From: a virus
Strand: one strand, 5' to 3'
IMG/VR virus record: IMGVR_UViG_3300025127_000260
Span: 1-24,749 of that record
DNA: 24,749 bases
Position numbers and translations under genes: made by a program
Shown: piece after piece, positions 7,980 through 23,801 of the stretch
Layout of the letters: each line of letters begins with the position of its first letter
Numbering within the stretch: the stretch's first letter is position 1
The notes under the pieces: model-generated
Told to the model about the DNA's origin: nothing
Seen by the model: only the letters and a program-made list of their open reading frames with translations
The model's database searches: none

Positions 7980-10900
7980 TCAGGCCTCCTGTAACGCTTG
8001 CATTGGGGTTTCGAAGGCTGCCGCTGACTTACGTAGCTGACCAACTCCCCCCTGTGTCATGTTAACCCCACCAGGCTGCTCTTGGCCAGCGGGCGGTTGT
8101 GAAATGTTTTGTTGAAGCGCACCAATGATTTGCGGATTCATGCTTGTATTCATTGGCGATTTGGTCGCCAGTGAGAACATTACTTGAATGCTGTATGGTG
8201 CTTTGACGCCCTCTTGCTGAAAGCTCTCAATCGCCGCATCTAATGTTTCCGCTGTGAGTTGCGGATAAACCTGTGACATCATCTGCATGATTTGAGGCGT
8301 CAGCTTGTTGCGGGACGCTAGGTAGAAGAACGTACCGATCGGATCATTGATGACAAAGAGTGCGTCTCGCATCCGCTCTTTATCTTCGGGCGTTGGTACA
8401 AACTCCACAGCTCCAAAGGGCGTATCCTCTGGCTGAGGTGGTATGATGCTGTTGAGCAGGCTATAAGCTCGAGCCACAGTCTGATCCATAGGCATTCTCA
8501 TTTTTTCGACTTGATTGAATTTGCCCTGCGCGCGAAGCATGGTCTTTGCTAGCCCATCCTGATCACCTGCCTGGTCCTCTACCTGTGTAAGAGCTTGGTT
8601 GTATTCCTCATCAGACATGGTGTCGTCTGGGTTGTTCATGCCACGCAAGGTCAGCCCCATTGCACGCGCCAGGACAGAACGTCTACCAGCAAACTCCTCA
8701 GGTTTTGCGCCCTGAATGGTTTTGATCATGTTGTTTGCGCGATTATCGATGAACTCACGAGTAAACTTCCCTGCACCATAGACACCGGCGGCAATGCGCA
8801 GAATGTCTCGAGGGTTGTCCATGAGCTTAAAGGAGGCGTAGAGACCGACAGCCACAGGAGTTGGGATTAGGCTACCGACGGCGTTAGTGATGGCTTCAAG
8901 GCCAAAGGCATTTGCCACTGAGCCAAAGCGGTCGCGCTGGCGGTATGCTAATAAGTCACGGACATCTTGATCGACGTGAGTTTTTGAGAGCTCGTCCAGT
9001 TCTCGAGCCTTCGCCTCTTTGACGCTTAGTTTGCGCTTCTCGATATCTTGAACCTCGGCCTGCAGGTCATCAATCTTGCGCAGGTAAGGATCAACATCTT
9101 CTCTAGTCCGATACTCAATTTCTTCAAGCTCTTTGAGGAGTTGAGACTTAGTATTGCCAAAGTCCTCATCAATTTCAGTCAAGCGCTTAGCCTCTGCTCG
9201 TTTAGAGTCAATGCTTTCGCGCTTGAGATCCTGTAGGTCTCTGCGGTGTCTTACCTGGTTTTCTCGTTTTTGTCTGGCGATATCTGCTAGCTGGGTCCTG
9301 AATCCATCAGCCTGCTCCTGTAGCTCTAGCTTGACGGAGCCGATTTCCTCGTCAATTCGGCGCTCTAGACTGTTGAGGTTGTCTTTGAGTCTTACCTCTT
9401 GCAGGGTGAGGTCGCTGAGCTGATCCGTGCGAATGCGGTTAATGTACTCAACGGCGTTTCTGTTGAGCTTCTTCGTCTTCTTAATGCTGTCGCGCAGGGT
9501 CGCAATCGCCGCCAACTCAGCGTTGCGATATCCACGAACAAACTCAGCGATTAAACTCTGCTCTTGTCTGGAGAAATCCTTTGACCTAGCTGCCATCTGA
9601 CGAATGCTATCGAGCGCAGTTTGAAAGTCGTCTTGCGCGTCCGCGCGCCTCTGAGCAAATTCGACCAAGATCTCTGCATTAAATTCTTTTTCGCTGGCTA
9701 GATTAGCTTTGGCACTCTCCATAAACTTGGTGAAGTTTGCCTCAATCTTCTTCGATAAGTCTTTAAGCTGCTTCTTATCCTGAGCGCTTGCTTGCGCTCT
9801 AGCCAACGCGGCGTCCTTACCTTCTGCAATCTCGAGCTGCTTCATGCGGAAGGCTTCGTCTAGGCTTCTGCCTTGAGCTACTTGCTCCTTAAGATTATTT
9901 GCAAGGTTTTTAATTACATCTGATTTGCGTACTTTGGTGATGCTTTCAATTTGATCGAAGAGCTTATCGCCAACCACGAAGTCGTAACGCATGAAGTGAG
10001 CGAACTCATCGAGCACCTGCCGGAAGTTGCTCATCATCTCGATTTGATTTGTCAAATTAACTGTTTGGTCAGTCAAAGATTTAGACAGCTTGTCGAACTG
10101 TGCGGCGTCCTTGAATGGCTTGGTCTCTGCCAGCTGAGCTGCATTGAAGGCTTGGCGCATTGGAGTAAAGATGTCATCTGCGGCGTTCTGTAGGTCGGTT
10201 GCAAGCTTAAGATACTCCTCTGCATCACTAACAGTCGGATTCTTAAGGTTGCCCTTGTTGTACTTAACTAAGTTGGTCAGCTTTCTGCGGTAGTTCTCAA
10301 GCTCTGCTACTCTTGAGATTTGATCACCTGCGCCCATGAAATTTTTAAGAGCGTCGCGAATACCTGATTTGGCTTCAACCGCTGAAGATATGGCGGTGTT
10401 GCGGATATCGCCAAGTGAGCGAAATGCTGTGTCGAATTCGCTCAGCATACGAGACATCTGCAAGAATACACCGGTCGCTTGATCAGCTATGGCTTTCTGA
10501 TTGGCTGCTGCTTGTTTTTGAGAAGTTTGACCGGCTATGACCGCTTTACCACCAGGAGCAGAATCATCCACCATGTTGCGTAGTCTGGCTAGGTTTTGAT
10601 CCAGGGAGAATTCCCCTTGCGTTCGGAATGCCTCTGCTTGACCAACTAACTTGTCAAATTGAGATTTGAACATTGGGGTAAAGCCAGTGTCATCAACAAG
10701 GATGGTTAATTGCTTTTCGTATTGTTTGATAGCTTCTTTAACGTCGGTCAAAGCCTTCACGATTTCGTTGCCATGGGTATCTGCGCCGACGCCTTTTTCC
10801 AAAAATGCGTCTCTAATGCTGCGGGCAAAGAAGTTGCCGTCTATATCTTTTGGCGTGAAGAACAGAGATGATGCAAGCTTCTGGTCAAGCTTAGGCAGCT

Positions 10901-12911
10901 GCAGGGCTTTGGAGATCTGCTGAGTGAGCGACGTAATGTTGGCTACCGTGGCGTCAAACTCGGCCTTTGCTGACTTTTCCTCTTTTGAGACCAATCCCTT
11001 AAGTCGTTTAATGATGTTGGCTTCTTCTTGGTTTGATGATCTGAGCTGATTAGCTATTGTTTTCAGCTCTCTCTGTGCCTTGCTTAAATCTTCAGCCTGC
11101 TTCTGCATGGCCAGAAACTCAATGTCAGCTAATCGCTCTGCTGCAGCCTCAACCATAGCGCGATTGCCTTTGTTTTCAGAAATGACTCTGTCGATCTCGT
11201 CAACGTAGCCGTCAATCTCGCGCTTCGAAAGCTTATCGAACTTTGCCTGGTCTAGCCCAATGTCTACAATCTCAAAGTCATGTGCCATCTTTGCATCGAC
11301 AGCATCGCTTTCTAGTTCGGCTAGCTCTTTGCGCAGCCGCGTCTCTACGCCGGCTTTTGCTCGAACACCCTCTTGCACCACAGCTTGAATTTCAATGTTC
11401 TTCGCATCGATCTGCGCAGCGAGATCATCGATGTACTTACTGTAGAACTCATCGACCGAAATACGGGCATCTGCAAAAGACTTCTTTTTGTCTCGAGCTT
11501 TTTCCTTAAATTCTGCAGATAGAACAGGGGCTAGTGCTTTCGTGCGCGCTTTGTATGCCTTTAGCTCTGCAAGAGTGGTGGCTGCGCCAGAGGCGGCCCT
11601 GCTTCTCTCGGTCTGGATCCGCTGTATGTCGTCTTCAACTTGAGTCAAAAACTCAACGCGAGCCTCCTCGGTCTCAAGCCTCCGACCTGCAATCTCAACA
11701 GCCTGCTCGCGAGTGGCATTTCTAACCGCTTCTCTGGTCGCTTTTAAGGCGTTGATCTGCTCGTCGTATCGCTTAACTGCGTCTTTCTGCTCATCTTTAC
11801 CGATTCGACGACGCTCTGCTGCGTCTCCTTTGCTAAGTCGTATCTCCTGTCTTTTCACCTGGGCTTGAGCTGTTAGTAGTTGTGACTCTAGGTCATGCCT
11901 TGCGGCTGTGGCCGCCACCTTGGTGCGCACGCCCTCAACATCCGCCACCGCTCGCGTGTACTCATCAAGAGAAAGTTTACCACTTGCGATGTTGCCAAAG
12001 AGCTTTTGAAATTTGCCTCTGATCTCATCGCCACCATGGATAAAGATAGATGAGAGAGCTTTACCAAACTTCTCTCCATGCTTTTCGACCATGTCGCCAT
12101 AGATGCTTCTGGCAATACCTGTGGCGGCCTTACCAGTCATCGCCGCGCCTCCGAGCGTAGCGGGGAGACCCAAGGCAAAAAGCGGACCCATGAACGCACC
12201 ACCAGCTGTGCCCTCAATAGCAGATGACAAGATCTGCTCAGCAGTGGCGTCTGGATTGGTGATCAGCTCTTCGTTGATGCCATACGCACCACCATACACA
12301 CTGCCCTCTGCAACTCCTCTGACCCCCAACGGAAGAACAGTGCCCGCTGCTCTCTGTAGTCTAGATGCATTCTCAGTGGATTCTTTGATGATGTTTTGCG
12401 CGATGCGGTTCTGAACCCTCTCGCCAACTCGAGTGAGGGCATTGTCTGGTGCAATCTTGAGATACGCTTCGGCAGCCTTTTCTGCAGCTTCACCAGCCTT
12501 GCGTGCAGTTTTACCGCCAACAACATTTGCACCCTCTAGGATGCGGCCCGCATAGCTTGTGCCTTTAGCTGCTCCGCGAATAAGCATCGGACCAAACAAG
12601 CTGCCGATTACTTCAGTGCCGTAATACGCGATGGGGTTTTCTTTGGCGATTGCCTCTGTGGTGCCAGGCTCTATGAAGCCAGTCTTCTCCAGTATGCCAG
12701 CACCCATGCCAATGGTTGGAACCTGAAAGGCACCAAGAGCGGCAGCAGCGATTGGCGAGTCCCTGTACTCCGAACGCAGACGACGACGATTGCCTTCCTC
12801 TTGCGACACTGGATCAAGATTAAGCCTTGCGGCCTCATCTAAAGCCTCTTGGTCGTCGGCAGGGATCGCTATAAACCTGCCGCCAGCATTAAAGTAAAGC
12901 ATCTCAGCCAT
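7980..12911 (-). CDS. Giant internal virion (ejection) protein, 1643 residues
   Basis: The position matches gp16 of T7-like phages: last and largest of the internal-protein genes, before the tail fibre. The N-terminal about 280 residues contain several Gly/Ala-rich hydrophobic stretches (AAAALGAFQVPTIGMGAGIL near 54-73, and GGAFMGPLFALGLPATLGG near 236-254). Residues about 300-1310 are almost entirely charged helix with heptads, a very long coiled coil. Near 1325-1370 is another hydrophobic region (GSLIPTPVAVGLYASF). The last about 270 residues are polar and Gln-rich. No lysozyme, SLT or protease motif was recognised, unlike T7 gp16, which has a transglycosylase. The ATG at 12911 overlaps the previous gene by 8 bp with no clear Shine-Dalgarno; the ATG at 12902 is an alternative. 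Confidence 0.72.
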   Translation of the reverse strand: MAEMLYFNAGGRFIAIPADDQEALDEAARLNLDPVSQEEGNRRRLRSEYRDSPIAAAALGAFQVPTIGMGAGILEKTGFIEPGTTEAIAKENPIAYYGTEVIGSLFGPMLIRGAAKGTSYAGRILEGANVVGGKTARKAGEAAEKAAEAYLKIAPDNALTRVGERVQNRIAQNIIKESTENASRLQRAAGTVLPLGVRGVAEGSVYGGAYGINEELITNPDATAEQILSSAIEGTAGGAFMGPLFALGLPATLGGAAMTGKAATGIARSIYGDMVEKHGEKFGKALSSIFIHGGDEIRGKFQKLFGNIASGKLSLDEYTRAVADVEGVRTKVAATAARHDLESQLLTAQAQVKRQEIRLSKGDAAERRRIGKDEQKDAVKRYDEQINALKATREAVRNATREQAVEIAGRRLETEEARVEFLTQVEDDIQRIQTERSRAASGAATTLAELKAYKARTKALAPVLSAEFKEKARDKKKSFADARISVDEFYSKYIDDLAAQIDAKNIEIQAVVQEGVRAKAGVETRLRKELAELESDAVDAKMAHDFEIVDIGLDQAKFDKLSKREIDGYVDEIDRVISENKGNRAMVEAAAERLADIEFLAMQKQAEDLSKAQRELKTIANQLRSSNQEEANIIKRLKGLVSKEEKSAKAEFDATVANITSLTQQISKALQLPKLDQKLASSLFFTPKDIDGNFFARSIRDAFLEKGVGADTHGNEIVKALTDVKEAIKQYEKQLTILVDDTGFTPMFKSQFDKLVGQAEAFRTQGEFSLDQNLARLRNMVDDSAPGGKAVIAGQTSQKQAAANQKAIADQATGVFLQMSRMLSEFDTAFRSLGDIRNTAISSAVEAKSGIRDALKNFMGAGDQISRVAELENYRRKLTNLVKYNKGNLKNPTVSDAEEYLKLATDLQNAADDIFTPMRQAFNAAQLAETKPFKDAAQFDKLSKSLTDQTVNLTNQIEMMSNFRQVLDEFAHFMRYDFVVGDKLFDQIESITKVRKSDVIKNLANNLKEQVAQGRSLDEAFRMKQLEIAEGKDAALARAQASAQDKKQLKDLSKKIEANFTKFMESAKANLASEKEFNAEILVEFAQRRADAQDDFQTALDSIRQMAARSKDFSRQEQSLIAEFVRGYRNAELAAIATLRDSIKKTKKLNRNAVEYINRIRTDQLSDLTLQEVRLKDNLNSLERRIDEEIGSVKLELQEQADGFRTQLADIARQKRENQVRHRRDLQDLKRESIDSKRAEAKRLTEIDEDFGNTKSQLLKELEEIEYRTREDVDPYLRKIDDLQAEVQDIEKRKLSVKEAKARELDELSKTHVDQDVRDLLAYRQRDRFGSVANAFGLEAITNAVGSLIPTPVAVGLYASFKLMDNPRDILRIAAGVYGAGKFTREFIDNRANNMIKTIQGAKPEEFAGRRSVLARAMGLTLRGMNNPDDTMSDEEYNQALTQVEDQAGDQDGLAKTMLRAQGKFNQVEKMRMPMDQTVARAYSLLNSIIPPQPEDTPFGAVEFVPTPEDKERMRDALFVINDPIGTFFYLASRNKLTPQIMQMMSQVYPQLTAETLDAAIESFQQEGVKAPYSIQVMFSLATKSPMNTSMNPQIIGALQQNISQPPAGQEQPGGVNMTQGGVGQLRKSAAAFETPMQALQEA

Positions 12912-14730
12912 CTATTGTGTAACCCGATAGCATACTCTTGCGCAGTTGTTCTGGCAGTTTGTAGGTGCCGTCTTGAAGTTGTCGGATAAACGAGGTCTCA
13001 AACTTGCCGCCATCCATATAGTCTTTATACTGCGGCAAGCTTCTGACATGCGTCAATGCGTCGTCGTATCGCATGCCTGCCTGTAGGCCTGTTTGACCAC
13101 CTAGGGTTGGTTGAGGAAGCATGAGGTATTCTGCCATGGCTTTATCAAACATGGCCTTCTCCTCTAAGTGTTGAACATATCCTATCAGGATTCGTGGATT
13201 GGTGCTCGATGCACCCAATACATCAACAAACATTTGCACGTCTCTGTTTGAGATACTTGAAGAAGACTGACCTGCGGATGCCATTGAGAATGCAAGCATC
13301 TGAATCATCTTTTGATAGGCGTCAAGATTTGCATAATCGCTGCTAACCTCTGTGCCTATAACATTCAGGAATTCATTGATAAACGGTCGACGCCCTTCGG
13401 CATCGGTTTGCTGCAGGGCGGCATTCGTAAGTCGAAGGAACTTGGTTCTAAAGCTTGAGCCACTTATCCCGGTCAGGTCGCCAAAAATGTTCTCCTCGTT
13501 GACGAGCTTGGCTAACACAGGGCCAAGTTCTTCAACATTACTGATGGAAAACTTTGCCTGCCTGATGTTATCGAGGGCAGAGTTTGCTCTGAAAAGGTCG
13601 TCTTTTGTCGCTCGAGCTTGTTCAAATGTGGCTGGCTTACCTCTGCCGCCACTCATCATCGACGCACTTGCCTTCATGGATAAGGCACGCATTTGCTGGT
13701 CAAGCTGAGCTTGCAGACGCATGTTGAGCTGCTCCTGACCAGCTTTCTTAAGAAGCGTATCAATTTTAGACTTGGCCTCGTTAATAATGATTTGTTTCGT
13801 TTTGAACTCCGCAGCTTTCTCGTCGCCTAGAATCTTAAGGTTGCGAGCGTAAAGATTGTTAGCGGTTTTAACCCGGTCACCAAGCTGATTGTACTGCTGT
13901 TGCTGAGTCTGCATTTCTCGGTCGATCATCTTATTGATCATATCAAGACCGATGTTTGAGCCACCGCCTCCACGTAGGCCTTGGGCAGCTGCACCTAGAG
14001 CGATGGCAATACCTGCTGCAATCTTACTGCCGAGGGTAGGCATGGCTCGACCAGGGTCAAAGCGAAATCTGCCCTGCATGTCGTCTGCCTCTCCGAGCTT
14101 TTCTTTTGCGTCGGCAAGAGCTGCCTTTGCCTGCAGCTTCTCAAGAGACTCGTAATCACGCGCCTCCTTGTAGCCCTGCTCTGCTAATTTATTTGCCTCA
14201 AGATAAGTGTCATACGCGCCTTTAATCTCTGTCTTAGGAGCGGTCCGCGTGCTCAGCGACATACTGGCTCGAGCAGGAGCGGGTGGCAGCTTTGTTTTGC
14301 CGCCGACCGCATCTGCCACTTCTGTCTTTGTTGGCTTTGTCTCTTCTTCTGCCCGTGCTTGAGCAGGAGCGGTAGGCTGTGGCGCTTGAGGCACAGGGCC
14401 TCTTCTTGCAGCAATTCTTTGATTTTCCGCAAGACGCATCCCCATTCCGGCCTGACCCACTTGCTCAGCTGTTCCAAACTCACCACCTAAGAATCTCTGC
14501 AAGTCTCTCTGACGTTCAACCTCTGGATCTGAAACGAGTGTAGACGGGTCCACAGGCGTGGCTAGACCAGCAGCCTCCGCGACAGCTGTCCTAGGGGCAG
14601 TAAACATATTGCTTAAGAAATTTCTCACAGCGTCTCTGTTATCTTGCTCGCGTTCCTCAGGCAAAGACTGCGATTCCTCAAGTATCTGTGCGATTTGCTC
14701 TTCGGTCATTTGTGATGATCCGTCAGCCAT
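12904..14730 (-). CDS. Internal virion protein, 608 residues
   Basis: Position is between the chaperone-tailed protein and the giant ejection protein, comparable to T7 gp15. The N-terminal about 50 residues are acidic, followed by a Pro/Ala-rich linker (about 110-150). A hydrophobic Gly/Ala stretch near 233-255 (SKIAAGIAIALGAAAQGLRG) leads into Gln-rich coiled coil (about 265-350). A helical C-terminal half follows, with NIFGDLTGISGSSFRTKF and an NxFLNVIGTEVSSDY-like segment. GGAG with a 6-nt spacer supports the ATG. The role is inferred: released into the cell envelope with the neighbouring proteins to carry DNA across. No enzymatic motif is recognised. Confidence 0.62.
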   Translation of the reverse strand: MADGSSQMTEEQIAQILEESQSLPEEREQDNRDAVRNFLSNMFTAPRTAVAEAAGLATPVDPSTLVSDPEVERQRDLQRFLGGEFGTAEQVGQAGMGMRLAENQRIAARRGPVPQAPQPTAPAQARAEEETKPTKTEVADAVGGKTKLPPAPARASMSLSTRTAPKTEIKGAYDTYLEANKLAEQGYKEARDYESLEKLQAKAALADAKEKLGEADDMQGRFRFDPGRAMPTLGSKIAAGIAIALGAAAQGLRGGGGSNIGLDMINKMIDREMQTQQQQYNQLGDRVKTANNLYARNLKILGDEKAAEFKTKQIIINEAKSKIDTLLKKAGQEQLNMRLQAQLDQQMRALSMKASASMMSGGRGKPATFEQARATKDDLFRANSALDNIRQAKFSISNVEELGPVLAKLVNEENIFGDLTGISGSSFRTKFLRLTNAALQQTDAEGRRPFINEFLNVIGTEVSSDYANLDAYQKMIQMLAFSMASAGQSSSSISNRDVQMFVDVLGASSTNPRILIGYVQHLEEKAMFDKAMAEYLMLPQPTLGGQTGLQAGMRYDDALTHVRSLPQYKDYMDGGKFETSFIRQLQDGTYKLPEQLRKSMLSGYTIDG

Positions 14731-14733
14731 TTT

Positions 14734-15597
14734 TTACTCCGCCATTTCTTCAATCTTCTTGAGTCGCTTATCGATCTGACCAAGAGCAGCAATCACCTTA
14801 CCAAAGCCCTGTGGGATTGTTTTGATGCCGCCCATGTCTTTGACCATGTCTTCTGGTAAGTCCTGAGCCATAACACCAAAGTCCCGCTTACCGTTTACAT
14901 CGTATTCTTTTGCGCTGATCTCGTCGAGGAACTGCTGCGCTTTTGCTGACCCGTCTTTGACATTTGACTTCATGCGCTCATCGGAAATCATTTGACCAAG
15001 CCCACCACCGAACTGACCACCAGCACCCATAAGGGATGTGCCGAGCGCTGCACCCAGCGGACCACCGGCCATAAATCCAAGCGCGCCAAGTCCAGCACCA
15101 GCTAAGCCACCTAGCAAGCCGCCCATGGCACCTTTGCGCTGCTCCTCAAGCTGCTTCTGTTGCTGCTGCTTTTGATACTCCATAACCTCGCCCTGGTACT
15201 GCATCTGCTGCATCTGTTGGTCAATCTGACCCATACGTGCTGCATCTGCTTCAGCTGCTTGTGCCGCTGCCGCCGCGCCTGTTTGTCCAATCGCACGCTC
15301 TGCACCCTGCATGCCTGCACCGGCAAACGGCCCTCTCTGTGCTGCTGCGACACCTCTTTGCGCGCCCGCAAGCTCTTGCTGTTGAGCCATAATCGCCTGA
15401 GCTGCATCACTGCGACGCTGTCGCTGCCTGAGCTGCGCCTGCTCTTGCCCCATGCCGGTAAATTGCGCCAAGGCTGGGCCCTCTAAGCCAGATGCACGAC
15501 CACGATCCTCTACGCTCCGGCCATACGCACCAAGGGCATCTCTGCGTTTTTTCTCTGCGTCAATTTTTTTCTTCGCCGCTTGGATCCCTGCAATCAT
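14734..15597 (-). CDS. Gly-rich virion protein with C-terminal S74-like intramolecular chaperone domain
   Basis: 287 residues. Residues 1-154 are Ala/Gln-rich helix with coiled coil (for example QIDQQMQQMQYQGEVMEY). Residues about 155-204 are a Gly/Ala/Leu-rich hydrophobic block (GGLLGGLAGAGLGALGFMAG and on) that could insert into a membrane. From Ser205 the end matches the Peptidase_S74 / endosialidase chaperone pattern: SDERMKSNV at the cleavage position, then a Tyr in SAKEYDV, RDFGVMAQDL, GFGKVIAALGQID and a final coiled-coil helix. Such domains trimerise their host protein and cut themselves off at the Ser. GGGAGG lies 6 nt before the ATG, which shares one base with the previous stop. It occupies a gp14-like internal-protein position. 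Confidence 0.72.
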   Translation of the reverse strand: MIAGIQAAKKKIDAEKKRRDALGAYGRSVEDRGRASGLEGPALAQFTGMGQEQAQLRQRQRRSDAAQAIMAQQQELAGAQRGVAAAQRGPFAGAGMQGAERAIGQTGAAAAAQAAEADAARMGQIDQQMQQMQYQGEVMEYQKQQQQKQLEEQRKGAMGGLLGGLAGAGLGALGFMAGGPLGAALGTSLMGAGGQFGGGLGQMISDERMKSNVKDGSAKAQQFLDEISAKEYDVNGKRDFGVMAQDLPEDMVKDMGGIKTIPQGFGKVIAALGQIDKRLKKIEEMAE

Positions 15598-16886
15598 TAT
15601 GAACCTCCCTCAAGAGCGCCTAAAAAGCTTTCGAGCAATGCCTCTCGTCCGGCTGGTGAGACATTTTGTATCATATCATATCCAATGCCCAAACGTTCCA
15701 ACTGTTCATCAATGGAGCGTTGTCTTGCGCGACGCTGCTCAGGGCTTCGTCTTTGCACCCTCATCTCTTGCGCTCGAGGGCTTTCCTGCACTGAAAGGCC
15801 AAGGTCAAGATTTGGATCAATTGCTTGAGCAGTCTGCACGCTTGTGACTGGACGCAGTGCGTCATCAACAACTTGTGTATCTAGGGGGATGTCAGGCCTA
15901 ACGCCCTGGAGCTCAATTCCCGGATCATCAGAAGGCCTTGCTAGTTCAACAGGCTGCCGAGGAGCCCCCATCGCCAACGCTTCCGCTTGTCGCTCTGGGC
16001 TATCAATCACGTCGAAGACAGCCCGAGGATTGTTTGCTTCCATAAGCTGCTGCCTAAAATCCAATCCCAGCGGCTCTGCTCGAGCAGCTTCGCGCGCAAA
16101 AAAGTCGAGGTCTCTCTCCATGTCAGTGCGCGTGTCTGGCGGTAGATTTAACGGCAAATCAACTGAGGGCATGCCTGCAACATCGGACGCAAGCATCGGC
16201 GCTTCACGCGGTGCAGATATAAAAGGGTTTTCCTCGAGAAACTGACGCCGACGCAAATCTGCATCCATCATGCTTTGTCGATCAGCAATGACAGACGCAG
16301 GTATAAATGCGTCGCTGGTAAATTGCCCCTCACGGGCTTCACGGGCCTCTGTCCTGCCTGGTATGAGCGACTCTGCTTCGTTAAGAACATCAGCGTCAAA
16401 CCGTGCATCGGGGTTAGCCTCAAGAAACTTTTGCATAGAGTCGCTACCCTCTTTAGCAGCCTCCTTAAGTCCGTCTTCAAGCTTTTTCTGTTGCGCAGCT
16501 ATTTCTGCTGCAGTGCTCGCTAAAGTAGATCCAGCCTGTAGGGCTGCTTGTCCTGCTCTAACTCGTCGCTCGGTCTCTGCTTTGTAATCTGCAAGCTCAG
16601 CTGCATCATCAATTTTCTTCATAGCAAGGTTTCTGTTAGCAAGGGCACGAAACGCTGCCGCCTTTTTTCTTTGCTCATCTGTCATCGCCTCACCGGCTGC
16701 GGAGCGCAGTATCTTCTTGCCTCTCTCGACGGCAGCAATCGGGGCGACTGGACCGGTAGCGCTCTCACGCGCAAGTTGCTCAGCTAAATCGCTTGCATAG
16801 TCTACACCAGAAGAGGGTGCTCTCTGCGGCATAGACGGCCTAGGTGCCTGAAAGAATTGTTGCGCTGCTTTGTTTGGCTGAACCAT
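15597..16886 (-). CDS. Candidate internal virion protein, 429 residues
   Basis: The N-terminal half (about 30-170) is Ala/Glu/Lys-rich helix (AELADYKAETERRVRAGQAA, STAAEIAAQQKKLEDGLKEA) consistent with coiled coil. The middle and C-terminal parts are Pro/Asp/Arg-rich and probably extended, with repeated short patterns such as RQxxxEANxP and ALxPVTSVQTAQ. The end, YDMIQNVSPAGREALLESFLGALEGG, is amphipathic helix. No membrane segment or catalytic motif is visible. It lies directly after the tail nozzle gene with a 7-nt gap, the place of the first internal protein in T7-like maps. The assignment rests on order and composition only. Confidence 0.55.
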   Translation of the reverse strand: MVQPNKAAQQFFQAPRPSMPQRAPSSGVDYASDLAEQLARESATGPVAPIAAVERGKKILRSAAGEAMTDEQRKKAAAFRALANRNLAMKKIDDAAELADYKAETERRVRAGQAALQAGSTLASTAAEIAAQQKKLEDGLKEAAKEGSDSMQKFLEANPDARFDADVLNEAESLIPGRTEAREAREGQFTSDAFIPASVIADRQSMMDADLRRRQFLEENPFISAPREAPMLASDVAGMPSVDLPLNLPPDTRTDMERDLDFFAREAARAEPLGLDFRQQLMEANNPRAVFDVIDSPERQAEALAMGAPRQPVELARPSDDPGIELQGVRPDIPLDTQVVDDALRPVTSVQTAQAIDPNLDLGLSVQESPRAQEMRVQRRSPEQRRARQRSIDEQLERLGIGYDMIQNVSPAGREALLESFLGALEGGS

Positions 16887-16893
16887 GTGTCAC

Positions 16894-19800
16894 CTATACT
16901 TTTGACATAGTCTTGGTTGTTGGAAGCTTGAAGGTACCTGGCTTCGCGCCAGCCTCTAATGCCACACCGTTGAGAGTCATGCCCTCGCCGCTCGCAGAAA
17001 ACACGATTGCAATTTCGATAGCTCGGCATTTTTGTTTTGCCAGATGAAAGCGCATATTGTTTGGCTCGCTCGATGGCGCTGGGTTGATGCTATAGGTTGC
17101 GCTGGCTGCTCCGTAGTCATATGCCACAGACACAGCTGTGTTTGAGTCGGATTTGTAGTCATACAGAACCATTGCTCTGTATATGCGCTGAACCCCCTGC
17201 AGACCATTAACAGCAATAGGTCTTAAATTGACCTTCACATCATAACTCACACTGTTATCTTGATAGAGAGTGTTGGATTGTTGATGTATGATCGCGCTGC
17301 TGGTGAGGATGTAATGTGTATCGTCTGCTGATCCTACGCCTGCGGTCGAAGAGTAGTTGATTTGATCAACCGGGTCATCTGCGCTGAGAACTTGCCACCG
17401 ATACCACAATTTAAAATACGTGTTGAAGATGAAGACGTGCGAGTCTGAAGTGCCAAGCTTGCCACCTGGGTCATCACACAAAAACCTAATCTCATTTAGA
17501 TGATCAAAAAGGACGATGCTTTTGACGGTCAACGAATCAAACAGATCCTCAAGCGGTGCTCCTACATACGAAATTTGAGCATTAGGCTGAATAAGGTAGA
17601 CACCTCTATCCGACACATAGAAGGTGCCAAGAGAATGCGAGAGATGCGGAGAGCCAGGTTTCGCACCCTGCCCTTGACCAATAACGTTTGGTTGAGAGAA
17701 CGCACCTGCGCCAATAGCATTTGGACCGTCTCCCTGCACCGCCATCACAGCATTCTCAGTGAAGATGCATAGAAAGTTTACGTTGGACTCAATGGCGGTT
17801 ACCTGCGATGAATCACCAGGAACATCTATGACAAAGCCCGGCACTGGAAAGCCCGGCGCAAACGCTTGGCGCAACGGTTTAGAGAACCGCACAAATTCAG
17901 TTGGTGTTGCTAGAAACACTCGACCACGATGCTCGATGATGTCGGTGACCGAACCGGGTTGATTGTTATCCAAGACACCGCCGGTCGTATAAACGACAGG
18001 TGCCCTATCGAACTCCTCGAGATCTTCACCGAAATCAAGAAACGTAAAGTGCCTTTGACTAGCATCAAGGGTCGCTGTCTTCACCTTCTTAATGAGAGGA
18101 CCATCGCCTGAAGGCGTGCTGCGGTACATCGTAACTCTGACGCTGCCGCGCTTAAGAGTGGCGTCACAAGCGTAAACTCGCGCACATATGGCAGTGAAGT
18201 CTGTAGCCGTGTCTATCTGCCTGACAGGCGTTGTCACAGACTCATGTATGTTATTAAGCGAGTCCACGAATTCATATGTAAACGTGTAGTTATACGTGGC
18301 AGGTGTGCCTGTAAGTCGCGATGTAGAATTCGTTGGTATCGCCACTAGCGAGCGGATTTCAGGGTTCTCGTAAAACCCATTCTCTACCAGTGTTTGCCCA
18401 TCAAATGAGAACAGAGAGCCACCACCAATAAGCAACTGATTGCCGACGTCGACAGCTGGCAATGACCTGTCTGTCTGCAGGTTAATCTCGGTAATAGAAA
18501 CAGAGTAAAACTGATCGACATCGATGGTATCTAAGGCGCTATTTTGCTCTGCATCTGTGTAAGTGTTTCCTGATGATGTGAGAATGTTTGAACCGAACAA
18601 TATTTTTTTGTTACCAAGAACATCTTTATCGACAGATGTAATCCTCGAAATGCCATCAAAAAGCCTAAACTCATTTTGATAGATGCTTCGATAATCTGAA
18701 GTGTAATTTAAGCTAGACTGTGTAGGTACCCCAGACGCAATCAGCTTACCTGTTGTGTCAATGAGGTAATTGCACGAGTTAAAATTTCCGTCATTACCGT
18801 TAGTGCGAGATATGTTCACATACGTTTGCGGCCCCAGAGCCGTGGCGTTGCTGCTAGAGTCTGGCTTTATAAAGTTGCGAAAGCTATCCGATATCAGGGA
18901 GGCGTTCTGATTAATTGAAGCATAGCTTGAGACAGCTGTTTTGCTTGTTCGCATGTACACGACTTCATGATCTTTAGTCCTGAGTAAATCATTGTTTTCG
19001 TCAATGGTTAGTGTCAGCGTTTCCCCTGAACCCATTGAGAAGCCAAAAAAAGTCTCAATCTTCTGCTTCAAGTCTAGGGTAGATGAATTAGGTATTGTGG
19101 CGGCTACAAACCCTGCCCCTGGCTCTACAATTGCGAACTTTATAGGCTTATTCGCACCACCCTCATGCGCTGCATAAAGCTTACAAGCTGATCCGAATTC
19201 AGCTAGATAAGCTCCGGTGGCGGCGTCGTTTCTGCCGGTAATAAAACCCTCTTTTGCGGTGATGGTCGCAGCCATGTTAGTGCTTGTTAGAGACGCAACA
19301 CCACCATACGAATCTGTTGTATCCTTGTAGAATGCTGTGCTTCCACCTTCAGGGGTTGCAGGAGATCCGTCTGTGCCAGAATGCGCCAATGTCAGAAAGA
19401 CATCAGCTGAAGTCGCTGAAAGATAACTCTGCGTGCCATTCACTAAGTACTTTTGCTGCAAGGATGCGTGTGTAAATTCGTTACCGGCTGCGCCGCTTAG
19501 GTCACTTGCAAAGAATCGCATGAAGACCTGTTGCTCGGATGACCCCTTACCTCCTGGCAAGGCTTGATTAAAGGCAGCAAAAAGAGGGTGACTCGAGGTG
19601 TCGTCAGGATCAAAGCGCAAAGCGATGGCAGGAAACGTCCCTGAGCCGTACCCAATGCCATTTGTATTTATCTCTGTTGCGCCTGACCCGCTAGATGACA
19701 GTTGTATCTCTGTGGTTGCTGTAAGGGTACCGGGTAAATTACTGAAAAGATATCTATGCAGGACCGCCTTACCCGTAATGGCTGTGCCAGTGCTGGTGTA

Positions 19801-20655
19801 AGCGGCAACATAAAGCTCCGTCTTATCTGACTTCACCTCAACTGCAATGCCTGGAGCGCGATGATGAGTGGTCAAAGCGAGACCGGCGTTGGTTGCAAGA
19901 CTGTATTTTGTCGGAGACCCTAAACTTGGCGGCTCTGATCCAGCAAAACTATACTTTACAAATTGAACGCCCGCTGCAAGTCCGCTTGTGTTTGTCTGGC
20001 TGAAGACGAGGTAGATATTACTGTTGTTGTCTTCAACCATATGAAGAGACGGCATTGAGGAGATGTTGTTGTAGAAGTTACTGCCAGTAGAGCGATTCAC
20101 CTCATGGATTACGGTCGGCTCTCTGAAGAATGCACCGCTAACAACTTCTTGAACAGCCACAACAATTTGATATTTTGATGTCGCAGATGATCCGGTAGGC
20201 ACGGTTTGCACGTAGGACAAAACATTGTAGTCCACAGATGAGACAGTTTTACGAATTAAATTGACGCGCCCGACTTTTTGATTGTTCGGTGTGAAGATGC
20301 TGTTGTTTGCGTACGTGCAATCCAGCAGATCTTCAACCATCTTCATGCTGTTTGTCCCAACCTTGGAATACAAAGCCTGCCCGTCGCAAAAAAGAAGGCT
20401 ATCTCGAAACTGGTGCAATCTCCTCCCCACGGTCGTGAGGCCGCTCAGCTGAGGCAGAAGGCCGCCTCTGTCGCCGACAACCGTCTGCACGTTGCGGAAA
20501 ACCCCAAAGCCTTTGCGCTTGTTGATTTGTCCTGCCTTGGTGAAGATTACGTTTTGAGCATCTTTGACTGACCCAGGCTGAGATAGTGGCTGAGATGATT
20601 TTTCATCAACGCCCTGAAGCAAGGGAAAAGTGACTACTTGTTTTTGCAACGCCAT
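16894..20655 (-). CDS. Very large tail nozzle / tail tubular protein B-like
   Basis: 1253 residues from the ATG at 20655, one base into the previous stop (TAATG); the upstream start at 20694 is rejected because it lies inside the previous gene. The start (QVVTFPLLQGVDEKSSQPLS, then SVKDAQNVIFTKAGQINKRK) resembles the N terminus of tail-tube/nozzle proteins that plug onto the adaptor (T7 gp12, P22 gp10 class). The C-terminal part reads as beta-propeller: HRGRVFLATPTEFVRFSKPL, VNFLCIFTENAVMAVQGDG, GTFYVSDRGVYLIQP, HVFIFNTYFKLWYRW. It is much longer than T7 gp12 (about 794 residues); the extra is Ser/Thr/Gly-rich beta sequence in the first 700 residues, which may be surface decoration. Confidence 0.75.
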   Translation of the reverse strand: MALQKQVVTFPLLQGVDEKSSQPLSQPGSVKDAQNVIFTKAGQINKRKGFGVFRNVQTVVGDRGGLLPQLSGLTTVGRRLHQFRDSLLFCDGQALYSKVGTNSMKMVEDLLDCTYANNSIFTPNNQKVGRVNLIRKTVSSVDYNVLSYVQTVPTGSSATSKYQIVVAVQEVVSGAFFREPTVIHEVNRSTGSNFYNNISSMPSLHMVEDNNSNIYLVFSQTNTSGLAAGVQFVKYSFAGSEPPSLGSPTKYSLATNAGLALTTHHRAPGIAVEVKSDKTELYVAAYTSTGTAITGKAVLHRYLFSNLPGTLTATTEIQLSSSGSGATEINTNGIGYGSGTFPAIALRFDPDDTSSHPLFAAFNQALPGGKGSSEQQVFMRFFASDLSGAAGNEFTHASLQQKYLVNGTQSYLSATSADVFLTLAHSGTDGSPATPEGGSTAFYKDTTDSYGGVASLTSTNMAATITAKEGFITGRNDAATGAYLAEFGSACKLYAAHEGGANKPIKFAIVEPGAGFVAATIPNSSTLDLKQKIETFFGFSMGSGETLTLTIDENNDLLRTKDHEVVYMRTSKTAVSSYASINQNASLISDSFRNFIKPDSSSNATALGPQTYVNISRTNGNDGNFNSCNYLIDTTGKLIASGVPTQSSLNYTSDYRSIYQNEFRLFDGISRITSVDKDVLGNKKILFGSNILTSSGNTYTDAEQNSALDTIDVDQFYSVSITEINLQTDRSLPAVDVGNQLLIGGGSLFSFDGQTLVENGFYENPEIRSLVAIPTNSTSRLTGTPATYNYTFTYEFVDSLNNIHESVTTPVRQIDTATDFTAICARVYACDATLKRGSVRVTMYRSTPSGDGPLIKKVKTATLDASQRHFTFLDFGEDLEEFDRAPVVYTTGGVLDNNQPGSVTDIIEHRGRVFLATPTEFVRFSKPLRQAFAPGFPVPGFVIDVPGDSSQVTAIESNVNFLCIFTENAVMAVQGDGPNAIGAGAFSQPNVIGQGQGAKPGSPHLSHSLGTFYVSDRGVYLIQPNAQISYVGAPLEDLFDSLTVKSIVLFDHLNEIRFLCDDPGGKLGTSDSHVFIFNTYFKLWYRWQVLSADDPVDQINYSSTAGVGSADDTHYILTSSAIIHQQSNTLYQDNSVSYDVKVNLRPIAVNGLQGVQRIYRAMVLYDYKSDSNTAVSVAYDYGAASATYSINPAPSSEPNNMRFHLAKQKCRAIEIAIVFSASGEGMTLNGVALEAGAKPGTFKLPTTKTMSKV

Positions 20656-20969
20656 TAAAACACCCACAAGGAAACGGTTACGTCGGCAGAGCACTGAAGA
20701 GTAAAGCTATCTTTACTGGTGCCAATACCAGCACTACCGTTGAAGATCACAGCGTTAGCACTTTTTTGCACGACAAAATAGCCCTGCACCGCTCTATCAA
20801 GAGGGTGTCCAATTTCGTTATTTTTGCCGGTTTTGAGCTCTACGTCAGCGATTAAGAATCCGTTTAAGATATCGACGCCTTGATACCCATCGAGCGCTGC
20901 TTTGATGTCGCGTTGCACCTTCGTAAGGTCCCCTGATAGGTGCAAACGAGGCATAAAATACGATGGCAT
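20655..20969 (-). CDS. Small beta-rich tail-associated protein
   Basis: 104 residues from the ATG at 20969 (GAGG with a 7-nt spacer). The second half has a pattern I recall from small phage virion proteins near adaptor or fibre genes: NEIGHPLDRAVQGYFVVQKS, a short AVIF strand, and a terminal TLQCSADVTVSLWVF. The first half is an amphipathic helix (LTKVQRDIKAALDGYQ) followed by strands. It lies between adaptor and nozzle and shares one base with the nozzle start, so it is probably a tail component. Function is not established. Confidence 0.62.
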   Translation of the reverse strand: MPSYFMPRLHLSGDLTKVQRDIKAALDGYQGVDILNGFLIADVELKTGKNNEIGHPLDRAVQGYFVVQKSANAVIFNGSAGIGTSKDSFTLQCSADVTVSLWVF

Positions 20970-20977
20970 AGCAAACC

Positions 20978-21658
20978 TCAGTATCGAACGATAAACGTGT
21001 TTCTGAATCGGCCCTTACGTATATCGCGAATAGCAAAAGAGCCACTAGCATCGCGAGGCGCTAGGGCTCGTATAATTCTGTTTTCGAGCAACTGTCGCTC
21101 TGCTGCCAAAGGTCCGATATCTGACTCTTCCTTCATCAACATACGGATAGCAGTCGCGACAACGATAAACTCCTCATACCCAGGGATCACGGTTTCAATC
21201 TCTGTGACCGTCGTAGAAAACTGTGTGGGTAGCGGAACGTAGTAAAGAGTGATTGATCCCGTTTGTGAGTTAGTTGGGATGAGCTTAAGTTTGCTGCCTT
21301 CGATTTTATACATGGGTTGTGCCAGTCGATCGATAACAGCAACAGGGGTATTGTAGATGTTGCGCTCACTAAAGGAGAAAGCCCTGAGCGTTGATGTAAC
21401 TCCACCCGAGCTATAATCAACACCCAGAGCCTTATAAAAGTCATCTGGCAGGTTAACGCCCCCGGTCGCAAGAGGGACGTTATAGACCTGCTCAGAGACA
21501 AAATAATCTTCGTAACTTTTGACCATAAAGTCATGGAGTTCAGCGATACTTGAGTTCAAGTAGTCCTGAATCTCTGCGTCTGTTACGAAGCTGGAATTCT
21601 CCATATCGGCGCGGCGACGCGCACGAGTCCTTAAATCGGCTTCTGTGAACGTCGCCAT
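20978..21658 (-). CDS. Head-tail adaptor (tail tubular protein A / gp4-like)
   Basis: 226 residues. The N-terminal MATFTEADLRTRARRRADME is typical of podovirus adaptors, followed by VTDAEIQDYLNSSIAELHDF, the helical part that contacts the portal. Then NLPDDFYKALGVDY, PMYKIEGSKLKLIPT, ITLYYVPLPTQF and PGYEEFIVVATAIRMLMKEE match the usual order of strands and C-terminal helices. It ends in a basic, aromatic tail (FRNTFIVRY). In related phages twelve copies join the portal to the nozzle. The place downstream of capsid and upstream of nozzle fits T7 gp11. Its Shine-Dalgarno is a poor GGGGGG-type sequence. Confidence 0.82.
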   Translation of the reverse strand: MATFTEADLRTRARRRADMENSSFVTDAEIQDYLNSSIAELHDFMVKSYEDYFVSEQVYNVPLATGGVNLPDDFYKALGVDYSSGGVTSTLRAFSFSERNIYNTPVAVIDRLAQPMYKIEGSKLKLIPTNSQTGSITLYYVPLPTQFSTTVTEIETVIPGYEEFIVVATAIRMLMKEESDIGPLAAERQLLENRIIRALAPRDASGSFAIRDIRKGRFRNTFIVRY

Positions 21659-22595: not shown

Positions 22596-23801
22596 TTATG
22601 CTAGCTTAACGCGAGCGTTGTAGCCAGGTGCGGTGCAGCCAATGTTTCCGTAGAAACCAACTCGAACTTCGTAAGCGTCCGCAGATGCTTCACGAAGCAT
22701 ACGGTTGCCATCAAGATCAAGAATGTGTGGAGCAGCACCAAGGCTGTTAAGAGTCCAGGTATCCATCTGAAGCATGTACGCAACGTCAGGAGTGCAGTTC
22801 TGATCAGCAACAATCTGGATTGGTCCCTTTGGCCCAAGGATAGTCAGTGACTGAAAGCCAATGTCTGCGTCATCGCTGCTTACTTTGTCGTAAACGACCT
22901 TAGATCCAAGCGCCTTCTCGAGGTTAGAGAAGTTTGCAAAGTTCATAAAGCAGTGCGTAGGTGATCCACCTTCGCGAGCAAGACGGCTAGCTGCACCGAT
23001 AAGCGCTTCCTCGATTGGCTGAGCAGAGCCGTCGAAACGGATACCGCCGAGGCGAGTAGCGTCTTTGCTTCGGTCTTGACCAAAGAAAAGAGCTGCGCTT
23101 GGTGCGGAAGCTGGGAGCCATGACTCGAGGCCAGAGATCTTCTTAGCAGAGCCACCGTTTTGTGCATCGCCACGTTGAAAGATAAAGTCATTGGTCGCAG
23201 CCGCTCCCGCATTATCTACGGTAAAAGTGCCTGCGTCACGGTCAACAGTCTGCACAACCATGGTCGTACCAGCCTTGATCGCACCGGTTGCGGCAGTGGC
23301 GGCATTAAGCTCCATGCCCACTTCAATGTTTGTGATTTGATCCTGTTTGAGCATCGTGAAGTCGGTGCCCGCAACACTTACTTGGCCAAGTGAACCAGAT
23401 CCATCGGCATACATAGAAACCGCAAGAGATCGAGTAAGCGACTGGATAGCGCCGTCGATTTCAAGAGTTGCATACTTAAGGAACGCATCCGCTGCGCCTT
23501 CAGTTGCTTTGATGGTTTCGCCGGTGATGCTGGCGAAAGAATAGTCCTTAACACGGGTAAGAACGAACCGTGCAAGCTCAGTTGCTGTGTTGAGGCCCTG
23601 CCCGGTTGAGAAGTCAGCAGAGCGTCGGTTTGCGATACCATACTGAACTGGAACAGGCATATTCTCACCGCCGAAGCGCTCATACTTAGGCATGAGGGCG
23701 AGCAGTGGGTTGTCCTTGTAGACCATGTTTTTGACGGTCAAGGGCTTGTAGTGCTCCTTAAGCGCCTGGGTGACGTTGTCGAGATTTAATGAAGTTGGCA
23801 T
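22596..23801 (-). CDS. Major capsid protein
   Basis: 401 residues. Place (after scaffolding-like gene, before decoration-like and adaptor genes), length and sequence style fit an HK97-fold capsid protein. There is a helical N terminus (NLDNVTQALKEHYKPLTVKN), then MVYKDNPLLALMPK, PVPVQYGIANRRSADFS, a spine-helix-like stretch (KATEGAADAFLKYATLEIDG), LARFVLTRVKDYSFASITGE upstream of it, THCFMNFANFSNLEKALGSK, and a final strand GCTAPGYNARVKLA. There is no delta-domain or fused protease. GGAG 6-7 nt before the ATG is the Shine-Dalgarno; it sits in a potential hairpin, listed separately. Identification is by context and fold style, not by a diagnostic motif. Confidence 0.82.
   Translation of the reverse strand: MPTSLNLDNVTQALKEHYKPLTVKNMVYKDNPLLALMPKYERFGGENMPVPVQYGIANRRSADFSTGQGLNTATELARFVLTRVKDYSFASITGETIKATEGAADAFLKYATLEIDGAIQSLTRSLAVSMYADGSGSLGQVSVAGTDFTMLKQDQITNIEVGMELNAATAATGAIKAGTTMVVQTVDRDAGTFTVDNAGAAATNDFIFQRGDAQNGGSAKKISGLESWLPASAPSAALFFGQDRSKDATRLGGIRFDGSAQPIEEALIGAASRLAREGGSPTHCFMNFANFSNLEKALGSKVVYDKVSSDDADIGFQSLTILGPKGPIQIVADQNCTPDVAYMLQMDTWTLNSLGAAPHILDLDGNRMLREASADAYEVRVGFYGNIGCTAPGYNARVKLA

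What the first reader, a model, noticed from the sequence alone, without database searches (positions are those of the whole stretch)
14734..15597. Endosialidase-type chaperone domain on a Gly-rich internal virion protein
S74-like chaperone domains usually end tail fibres and spikes. Here a clear match (Ser205-Asp-Glu-Arg-x-Lys, GVMAQDL, final coiled coil) ends a 287-residue protein. That protein has a 50-residue Gly/Ala/Leu block that looks membrane-inserting, and its gene lies among the ejection-protein genes. One model is a trimer whose hydrophobic block is held soluble by the chaperone until self-cleavage, then inserts in the envelope during DNA entry. Alternatively the protein is an external tail component.
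Basis: partly seen in the sequence, partly recalled or inferred. Interest (0 to 1): 0.55.

Follow-up and report, generated by a model that had tools for sequence, protein, structure and literature searches.

The report
Self-cutting chaperone on phage ejection protein
In a large group of uncultured short-tailed bacterial viruses, a small protein that is probably injected into the host at infection ends in a fold-and-cut-itself-off domain known mainly from tail fibres, which may keep its greasy end harmless until the virus is built.

Summary
The gene (minus strand, 14734-15597) ends in a Peptidase_S74 / endosialidase-type chaperone domain (Pfam 25 bits, cut-off 22), preceded by a 49-residue block without any charged residue. 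The same gene sits between the putative nozzle gene and two large genes in many uncultured phages, the place of T7 gene 14 and P22 gene 7. The Ser-Asp-x3-Lys cleavage motif is kept in 29 of 29 distinct relatives. Two orthologues without S74 end within about 3 residues of where S74 would start. The window and its nearest relative change sharply in DNA identity at that junction. A relative at the same place carries a peptidoglycan hydrolase. Best reading: a gp7/gp14-type ejection protein made as a precursor; S74 trimerises it, restrains its hydrophobic C-terminal block, and cuts itself off before Ser205, leaving about 204 residues. Domain and gene position are shown from sequence; cleavage, trimer, virion location and membrane insertion are inferred. 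No sequence homology to T7 gp14 or P22 gp7 was detected. A PHROG family called 'DNA ejection protein' already appears to include the architecture, so this is a new variant of a known kind.

The parts
14734..15597 (-). gene for the 287-aa S74-bearing protein (stop codon included)
   Evidence: its start overlaps the stop of the 429-aa gene by one base and its stop lies 3 bases before the 608-aa gene
15133..15597 (-). residues 1-155: helical Q/A-rich part, conserved in family members with and without S74
   Evidence: AF2 helices 2-35, 40-57, 64-86, 92-167; HMM matches
14986..15132 (-). residues 156-204: uncharged Gly/Leu/Ala block, predicted C-terminus of the mature protein
   Evidence: pLDDT under 50 at 168-205
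14737..14985 (-). residues 205-287: Peptidase_S74 / intramolecular chaperone domain
14968..14985 (-). Ser205-Asp-Glu-Arg-Met-Lys210: predicted Ser/Lys dyad; cleavage expected between Ile204 and Ser205
   Evidence: dyad spacing as in endoNF S911/K916 and MyRF S587/K592
14857..14877 (-). GVMAQDL (241-247), second conserved S74 motif
14740..14805 (-). residues 265-286: C-terminal helix, presumed trimerisation coiled coil
15597..16886 (-). 429-aa protein, no profile match at E 0.01 (neighbour)
12904..14730 (-). 608-aa protein in the place of T7 gp15 / P22 gp20 (label by position and size only)
7980..12911 (-). 1643-aa protein in the place of T7 gp16 / P22 gp16 (label by position and size only)
16894..20694 (-). 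1266-aa putative nozzle (label by position; no Pfam or PHROG match)
20978..21658 (-). head-tail adaptor, SU10_adaptor 53 bits (cut-off 27)
22596..23801 (-). major capsid protein, SU10_MCP 29.9 bits (cut-off 24.1)

Best explanation
The gene encodes the small ejection (internal virion) protein of a podovirus-like phage, in the role of P22 gp7 / T7 gp14, made as a precursor with a removable C-terminal S74 chaperone. Proposed steps: (1) the S74 domains of three chains assemble through the C-terminal helix; (2) this brings the hydrophobic Gly/Ala/Leu block 156-204 together and keeps it from aggregating or entering membranes of the producing cell; (3) Ser205, helped by Lys210, cuts the Ile204-Ser205 bond and frees the 83-residue domain; (4) the 204-residue product, ending in the hydrophobic block as P22 gp7 does, is packaged and ejected early and contributes to the envelope channel. 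Shown from sequence: the S74 domain, the dyad, the block, the gene position, S74-less orthologues ending at the junction. Inferred from the known S74 mechanism: trimer and cleavage. Inferred from position and anatomy: ejection. Most speculative: step 2 and the membrane insertion.
For: S74 membership: PF13884 over cut-off, 11 of 11 members of A1, SDxxxK in 29 of 29 distinct relatives; a profile of the domain alone finds two solved S74 chaperones in the PDB (3gud E 2.3e-4, 6f45 E 8.5e-4); its model has ICA domains at ranks 1, 3, 4 and 5 and 1-3, with weak scores. Not a fibre stalk: helices at 2-167 and no beta structure before the S74 domain. Position: putative nozzle, then this gene, then a protein of about 500-600 aa and a large one, in S74 relatives found through the S74 domain alone as well as through the capsid protein; same order as T7 and P22. 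Size: predicted mature form 204 aa, 194-227 aa in the 13 close members, against 181-240 aa for gp14-like proteins (PMC8954989, passages). Anatomy: P22 gp7 ends in two Gly/Ala-rich hydrophobic segments, 190-208 and 211-229 of 229. Module boundary: L010 and L023 (244 aa, no S74) match an HMM of the S74-free part to within 3 residues of both ends (E 4.7e-10 and 1.5e-11; 26 hits among 2331 ORFs, the other 24 S74 bearers); window versus L002 DNA identity rises from about 0.73-0.80 to 0.95 at codon ~202. Entry role: family member L057 carries Peptidase_M23 and the next gene in L047 an SLT domain. Processing precedent: P22 gp7 is itself trimmed, at the N-terminus, by a host protease (record note).
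Against: No sequence similarity to T7 gp14 or P22 gp7 by profile comparison (hhalign probabilities 0.1 and 0.4%). No virion proteomics. The hydrophobic block is weak by Kyte-Doolittle (1.46) and is not universal: a 15-residue mean of 1.2 or more within 60 residues before the Ser was found in 23 of 29 members, and an uncharged run of at least 15 directly before the Ser in 18 of 29. S74 domain fold matches are weak one by one (best Z 3.7, best Foldseek E 0.1). In the rows L104/L105 and L119 the S74 domain is internal, so cleavage there would split off a second half. About half of the readable capsid relatives lack S74, so it is not essential to the role. PHROG scans more often name the S74 part 'tail fiber protein' (6 of 11 members) than 'DNA ejection protein' (3 of 11).
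Confidence: 0.6

Rival explanations
1. The protein is an external trimeric tail part, such as a needle or plug in the tail (P22 gp26-like) or a short fibre, with an ordinary S74 fibre chaperone.
For: S74 usually ends fibres and spikes; in P22 the needle gene follows the nozzle gene directly and is 233 aa; PHROG fibre families match the S74 part in 6 of 11 members.
Against: No beta stalk predicted before S74. P22 gp26 has no hydrophobic segment at the cut-off used, unlike this protein and P22 gp7; no profile match to gp26. In most close members another gene (p429) stands between nozzle and S74. S74-less members would have lost their trimerising domain.
Confidence: 0.15
2. An ejection protein on which S74 works only as a trimerisation/folding tag and is never cleaved, so that the full 287-aa chain enters the virion.
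For: Chaperone and protease functions are separable in principle; the residue before the Ser is not fixed (I, V, F, M, W in 23 of 29, others in 6).
Against: Ser and Lys of the dyad invariant in 29 of 29 while the domain diverges to about 30% identity; S74-less orthologues end at the cut site.
Confidence: 0.15
3. The gene is an assembly factor (scaffold or chaperone acting on other virion proteins in the cell) that is not packaged.
For: P22 has a head-morphogenesis gene (14) between nozzle and gene 7; no direct evidence of packaging here.
Against: The hydrolase domain on relative L057 and the place next to the presumed ejection proteins suggest a job at entry.
Confidence: 0.1

Closest known systems
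Peptidase_S74 / intramolecular chaperone (CIMCD, ICA) domains: endoNF, GA-1 neck appendage protein, T5 L-shaped fibre, MyRF
   Same: Pfam family, Ser-x4-Lys dyad, GxxAQ motif, C-terminal helix; MyRF is a precedent for this domain outside fibres, next to a membrane segment
   Different: Here the part before S74 is predicted helical with a Gly/Ala/Leu hydrophobic block, not a beta stalk; the domain is short (83 residues) with no long tentacle
P22 gp7 (DNA ejection protein, 229 aa)
   Same: Gene position before two larger ejection genes; size of the predicted mature form; Gly/Ala-rich hydrophobic block at the C-terminus; proteolytic trimming
   Different: No detected sequence similarity; gp7 has no S74 and is trimmed at the N-terminus by a host protease
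T7 gp14 (196 aa, outer-membrane pore)
   Same: Gene position, size, hydrophobic segments at both ends
   Different: No detected sequence similarity; gp14 is kept soluble by gp15, no S74
PHROG 4287 'DNA ejection protein'
   Same: Weak match of the window protein over residues 22-259 (24 bits); relative L108 matches over its central part and S74 (40 bits)
   Different: Its founding phages were not identified here; in a six-frame search only 1 of 19 family records matched

Membership tests
Peptidase_S74 (PF13884) | Profile score over the curated cut-off | tested here: met
   25 bits vs 22; 11 of 11 members of A1 match
Peptidase_S74 (PF13884) | Ser and Lys five residues apart (catalytic dyad) | tested here: met
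   S205/K210; 29 of 29 distinct relatives; dyad rule from passages of PMC8326128 and PMC3742443
Peptidase_S74 (PF13884) | ICA fold | tested here: inconclusive
   Domain model pLDDT 87; ICA entries lead both lists but Z is at most 3.7 and Foldseek E at least 0.1
Peptidase_S74 (PF13884) | Trimer formation and self-cleavage | not testable with these tools
   Only monomer models are offered; no biochemistry
S74 tail fibre / tail spike | Beta-structured stalk or enzyme part before the S74 domain | tested here: not met
   AF2 model: helices 2-167, low-confidence block 168-205, no strand before residue 230
gp7/gp14-like podovirus ejection protein | Gene directly before the gp15-like and gp16-like genes, after adaptor and nozzle | tested here: met
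   Order in the window and relatives against T7 and P22; partner labels rest on position and size
gp7/gp14-like podovirus ejection protein | About 181-240 aa with hydrophobic segments | tested here: met
   Only for the predicted mature form: 204 aa, 194-227 in 13 close members; the precursor is 287 aa; range from PMC8954989 passages
gp7/gp14-like podovirus ejection protein | Sequence homology to a characterised member | tested here: inconclusive
   None to T7 gp14 or P22 gp7, each against a single sequence; the review gives 8-12% identity between T7 and other groups
gp7/gp14-like podovirus ejection protein | Inside the virion and ejected into the host | not testable with these tools
   No proteomics or cryo-EM

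The most novel reading that the evidence does not exclude
A self-removing chaperone guards a membrane-pore protein: S74 holds the pore-forming C-terminal block of the first ejected protein as an inert trimer in the producing cell and releases it by self-cleavage only when folded, a solution to keeping an insoluble pore protein safe that is separate from the T7 one (gp15), and one that phages gain or lose as an exchangeable cassette.
Probability: 0.35. Interest if true: 0.72.

Novelty: new variant of a known kind. Interest (0 to 1): 0.52.

Why it matters
Ejection proteins are insoluble membrane proteins that must be made, stored and then released; for T7 gp14 solubility is credited to gp15. A built-in, self-removing chaperone would be a different answer, and would extend the S74 domain from beta-stalk fibres to helical, membrane-active proteins, as MyRF does in animals. 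The single Ser205 and the predicted 204/83 split make this directly testable in E. coli with one recombinant protein.

Tried and rejected
Ordinary fibre with S74: rejected as first choice because no beta stalk is predicted and the position is that of ejection genes. L003, found with the S74 domain, is an ordinary S74 fibre.

The 99% identity of the S74 domain between window and L002 first looked like strong purifying selection; DNA comparison shows that silent changes drop too (pS 0.65-0.87 before, 0.26 in the domain) and that the high identity runs on into the next gene, so recent exchange or a recombination breakpoint explains it better.

Searches that led nowhere: tblastn of the window protein, the 1266-aa, 1643-aa and capsid proteins in 50,697 phage records at E 0.01 found nothing; the window's S74 part and relatives' proteins found only S74 parts of fibres or hypothetical proteins or nothing. 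The VIA comparison of the full model gave only generic helical matches with Z up to 7.0. NCBIfam gave nothing for this protein. Weak human-protein hits in the PDB are low-complexity matches.

Literature: searches for S74 or endosialidase together with ejection or internal virion protein found no paper describing S74 on an ejection protein. The only hit for 'chaperone of endosialidase' with 'internal virion protein' (PMC10783043, passages) names the two in different phage clusters. The jumbo-phage review says S74 serves fibres, spikes and other low-complexity proteins (PMC7824862, passages). PMC10386132 and PMC11784390 were read as passages. The library is open-access only, so this does not show absence from print.

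Full report
What is there. The coordinates hold a 287-codon ORF on the minus strand. Its last 83 residues are a Peptidase_S74 domain: 25 bits against a cut-off of 22 in Pfam and 27.8 bits in the six-frame search of the window. The part before it is predicted as long helices (2-167), then a low-confidence stretch (168-205), then the S74 fold. Residues 156-204 hold no charged residue and are 20 Gly, 9 Leu and 8 Ala of 49.

Relatives. The protein itself finds one close relative among viral contigs. The capsid protein finds 69 loci; in their 69 records PF13884 is over the cut-off in 11 of 35 and 1 of 34, many records being short fragments. An alignment of 11 members then found 34 loci. I pooled 45 sequences, dropped 16 identical ones and kept 29. 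All 29 have Ser-Asp-x3-Lys at the start of the domain; for L110 and L116 the script picked a later SD....K and I set the right one by hand from its printout. The patterns that found these loci did not contain the Ser-Lys motif. Of 19 records searched again, all 19 have a PF13884 match over the cut-off, and each of the 17 viral ones has exactly one, so no second S74 fibre is seen in them, with the caveat that they may be fragments.

Is it really an S74 domain? A profile of the domain alone finds the GA-1 neck appendage protein (3gud, E 2.3e-4) and a long-tail-fibre distal subunit (6f45, E 8.5e-4) in the PDB. A model of the domain alone (pLDDT 87) has the endoNF chaperone, 3gud, the T5 fibre chaperone and MyRF at ranks 1, 3, 4 and 5 of the VIA list (Z 3.7 to 2.9), and MyRF at ranks 1-3 by Foldseek (E 0.1 to 0.18). 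Each score is weak; that the same family fills the top is the point. In known members the Ser and Lys are needed for cleavage and cleavage needs the trimer (passages of PMC8326128, and PMC3742443).

Where the gene sits. In the window the order is scaffold-like, capsid, two small genes, adaptor, small gene, putative nozzle, 429 aa, S74 gene, 608 aa, 1643 aa. The S74 gene follows the nozzle-like gene, directly or after one gene, in nearly all S74 loci where that end is held, including those found through S74 alone. L102 and L115 had no blastp match to the nozzle and were not placed. T7 runs scaffold, 10, 11, 12, 13, 14, 15, 16, fibre. P22 runs 8, 5, orf69, 4, 10, 26, 14, 7, 20, 16. The S74 gene thus takes the place of T7 14 / P22 7. 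Nozzle, 608-aa and 1643-aa labels rest on position and size; no profile supports them. Independent hints of a role at the cell wall: a family member at the same place in L057 (N-terminal HMM E 2.1e-7) carries Peptidase_M23, and the gene after the family member of L047 carries an SLT domain; the gene after the S74 gene of L119 is a phage lysozyme. Thirteen other neighbour or partner proteins scanned, less the three named, showed nothing useful.

The junction. An HMM built from the 13 close members with S74 removed gives 26 hits among 2331 ORFs: 24 S74 bearers and the 244-aa proteins of L023 (E 1.5e-11) and L010 (E 4.7e-10), which have no S74 and whose ends match the model's end to within 3 residues. 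In these two, and in L066 (same place, no significant HMM match), the most hydrophobic 15-mer ends 26-30 residues before the C-terminus; in close S74 members it ends 19-29 residues before the Ser. So nature has S74-less versions that end where cleavage would end the mature protein. L064 and L062 also end in or just after a hydrophobic stretch, L068 does not, and L047 has another C-terminal module. Between window and L002, DNA identity rises from 0.73-0.80 to 0.95 at about codon 202 and stays high into the next gene, which suggests exchange with a breakpoint at the junction.

Gain and loss. By my reading capsid-relative contigs can be judged: 12 have S74 and 12 do not; the rest are too short. 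On a capsid tree of 35 rows (23 with S74, 12 without) the label needs at least 6 changes, at least 4 forced by well-supported branches. L010 and L023 sit inside S74-bearing clades. Their nozzle genes are of a different type (27.7% identity), so a whole block may have been swapped; the tree cannot tell gain from loss.

Comparison with known ejection proteins. gp14-like proteins are 181-240 aa, matched mostly by size and synteny, and T7 gp14 is insoluble alone, held soluble by gp15, and ejected first to form an outer-membrane pore (PMC8954989, passages). The predicted mature form is 204 aa and 194-227 aa in the 13 close members; in distant ones it is 171 to 774 aa. P22 gp7 has its two hydrophobic Gly/Ala segments at its very C-terminus (190-208, 211-229 of 229), and T7 gp14 has one at each end. 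Profile comparison finds no homology to either; the only aligned piece with gp7 (10 columns, E 0.17) happens to pair the two hydrophobic ends and is not significant.

Mechanism and its limits. Domain, dyad, block, position and junction are read from sequence. Trimer and cleavage follow from the known S74 mechanism. That the product is packaged and ejected follows from position and anatomy. That S74 keeps the block from membranes is a hypothesis; six of 29 members lack a clear hydrophobic 15-mer near the Ser, and in L104, L105 and L119 the domain is internal. Novelty is limited because a PHROG family already named 'DNA ejection protein' matches this architecture, although six searches of open-access papers found no description.

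Noticed in passing
L104 9569-11164, L105 9569-11164, L119 7110-9047: The S74 domain is internal, with over 200 further residues after it; self-cleavage would make two proteins from one gene. An 'LSPGEIVIP' module after it in L104 also stands at the C-terminus of the S74-less L047 protein.
   Followed up: partly
L057 7839-10004: A family member at the same gene position carries a Peptidase_M23 domain.
   Followed up: partly
L110 8816-10348: About 120 residues inserted between the SDKRGK motif and the rest of the S74 domain.
   Followed up: no
L116 8807-10309 (same protein in L033, L038): The SDE[RK]TK motif occurs twice, about 100 residues apart; the first copy may be a remnant S74 start.
   Followed up: no
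L100 10492-11124: The gene after the S74 gene has a weak partial S74 match (E 0.0018, model positions 5-32 only).
   Followed up: no
L088, L089, L091, L092: The counterpart of the 1643-aa protein is split in two ORFs.
   Followed up: no
window 1-24749: Capsid and adaptor resemble SU10 (Kuravirus) families by Pfam, yet tblastn finds no relative of the capsid protein in 50,697 phage records: an apparently uncultured lineage.
   Followed up: partly
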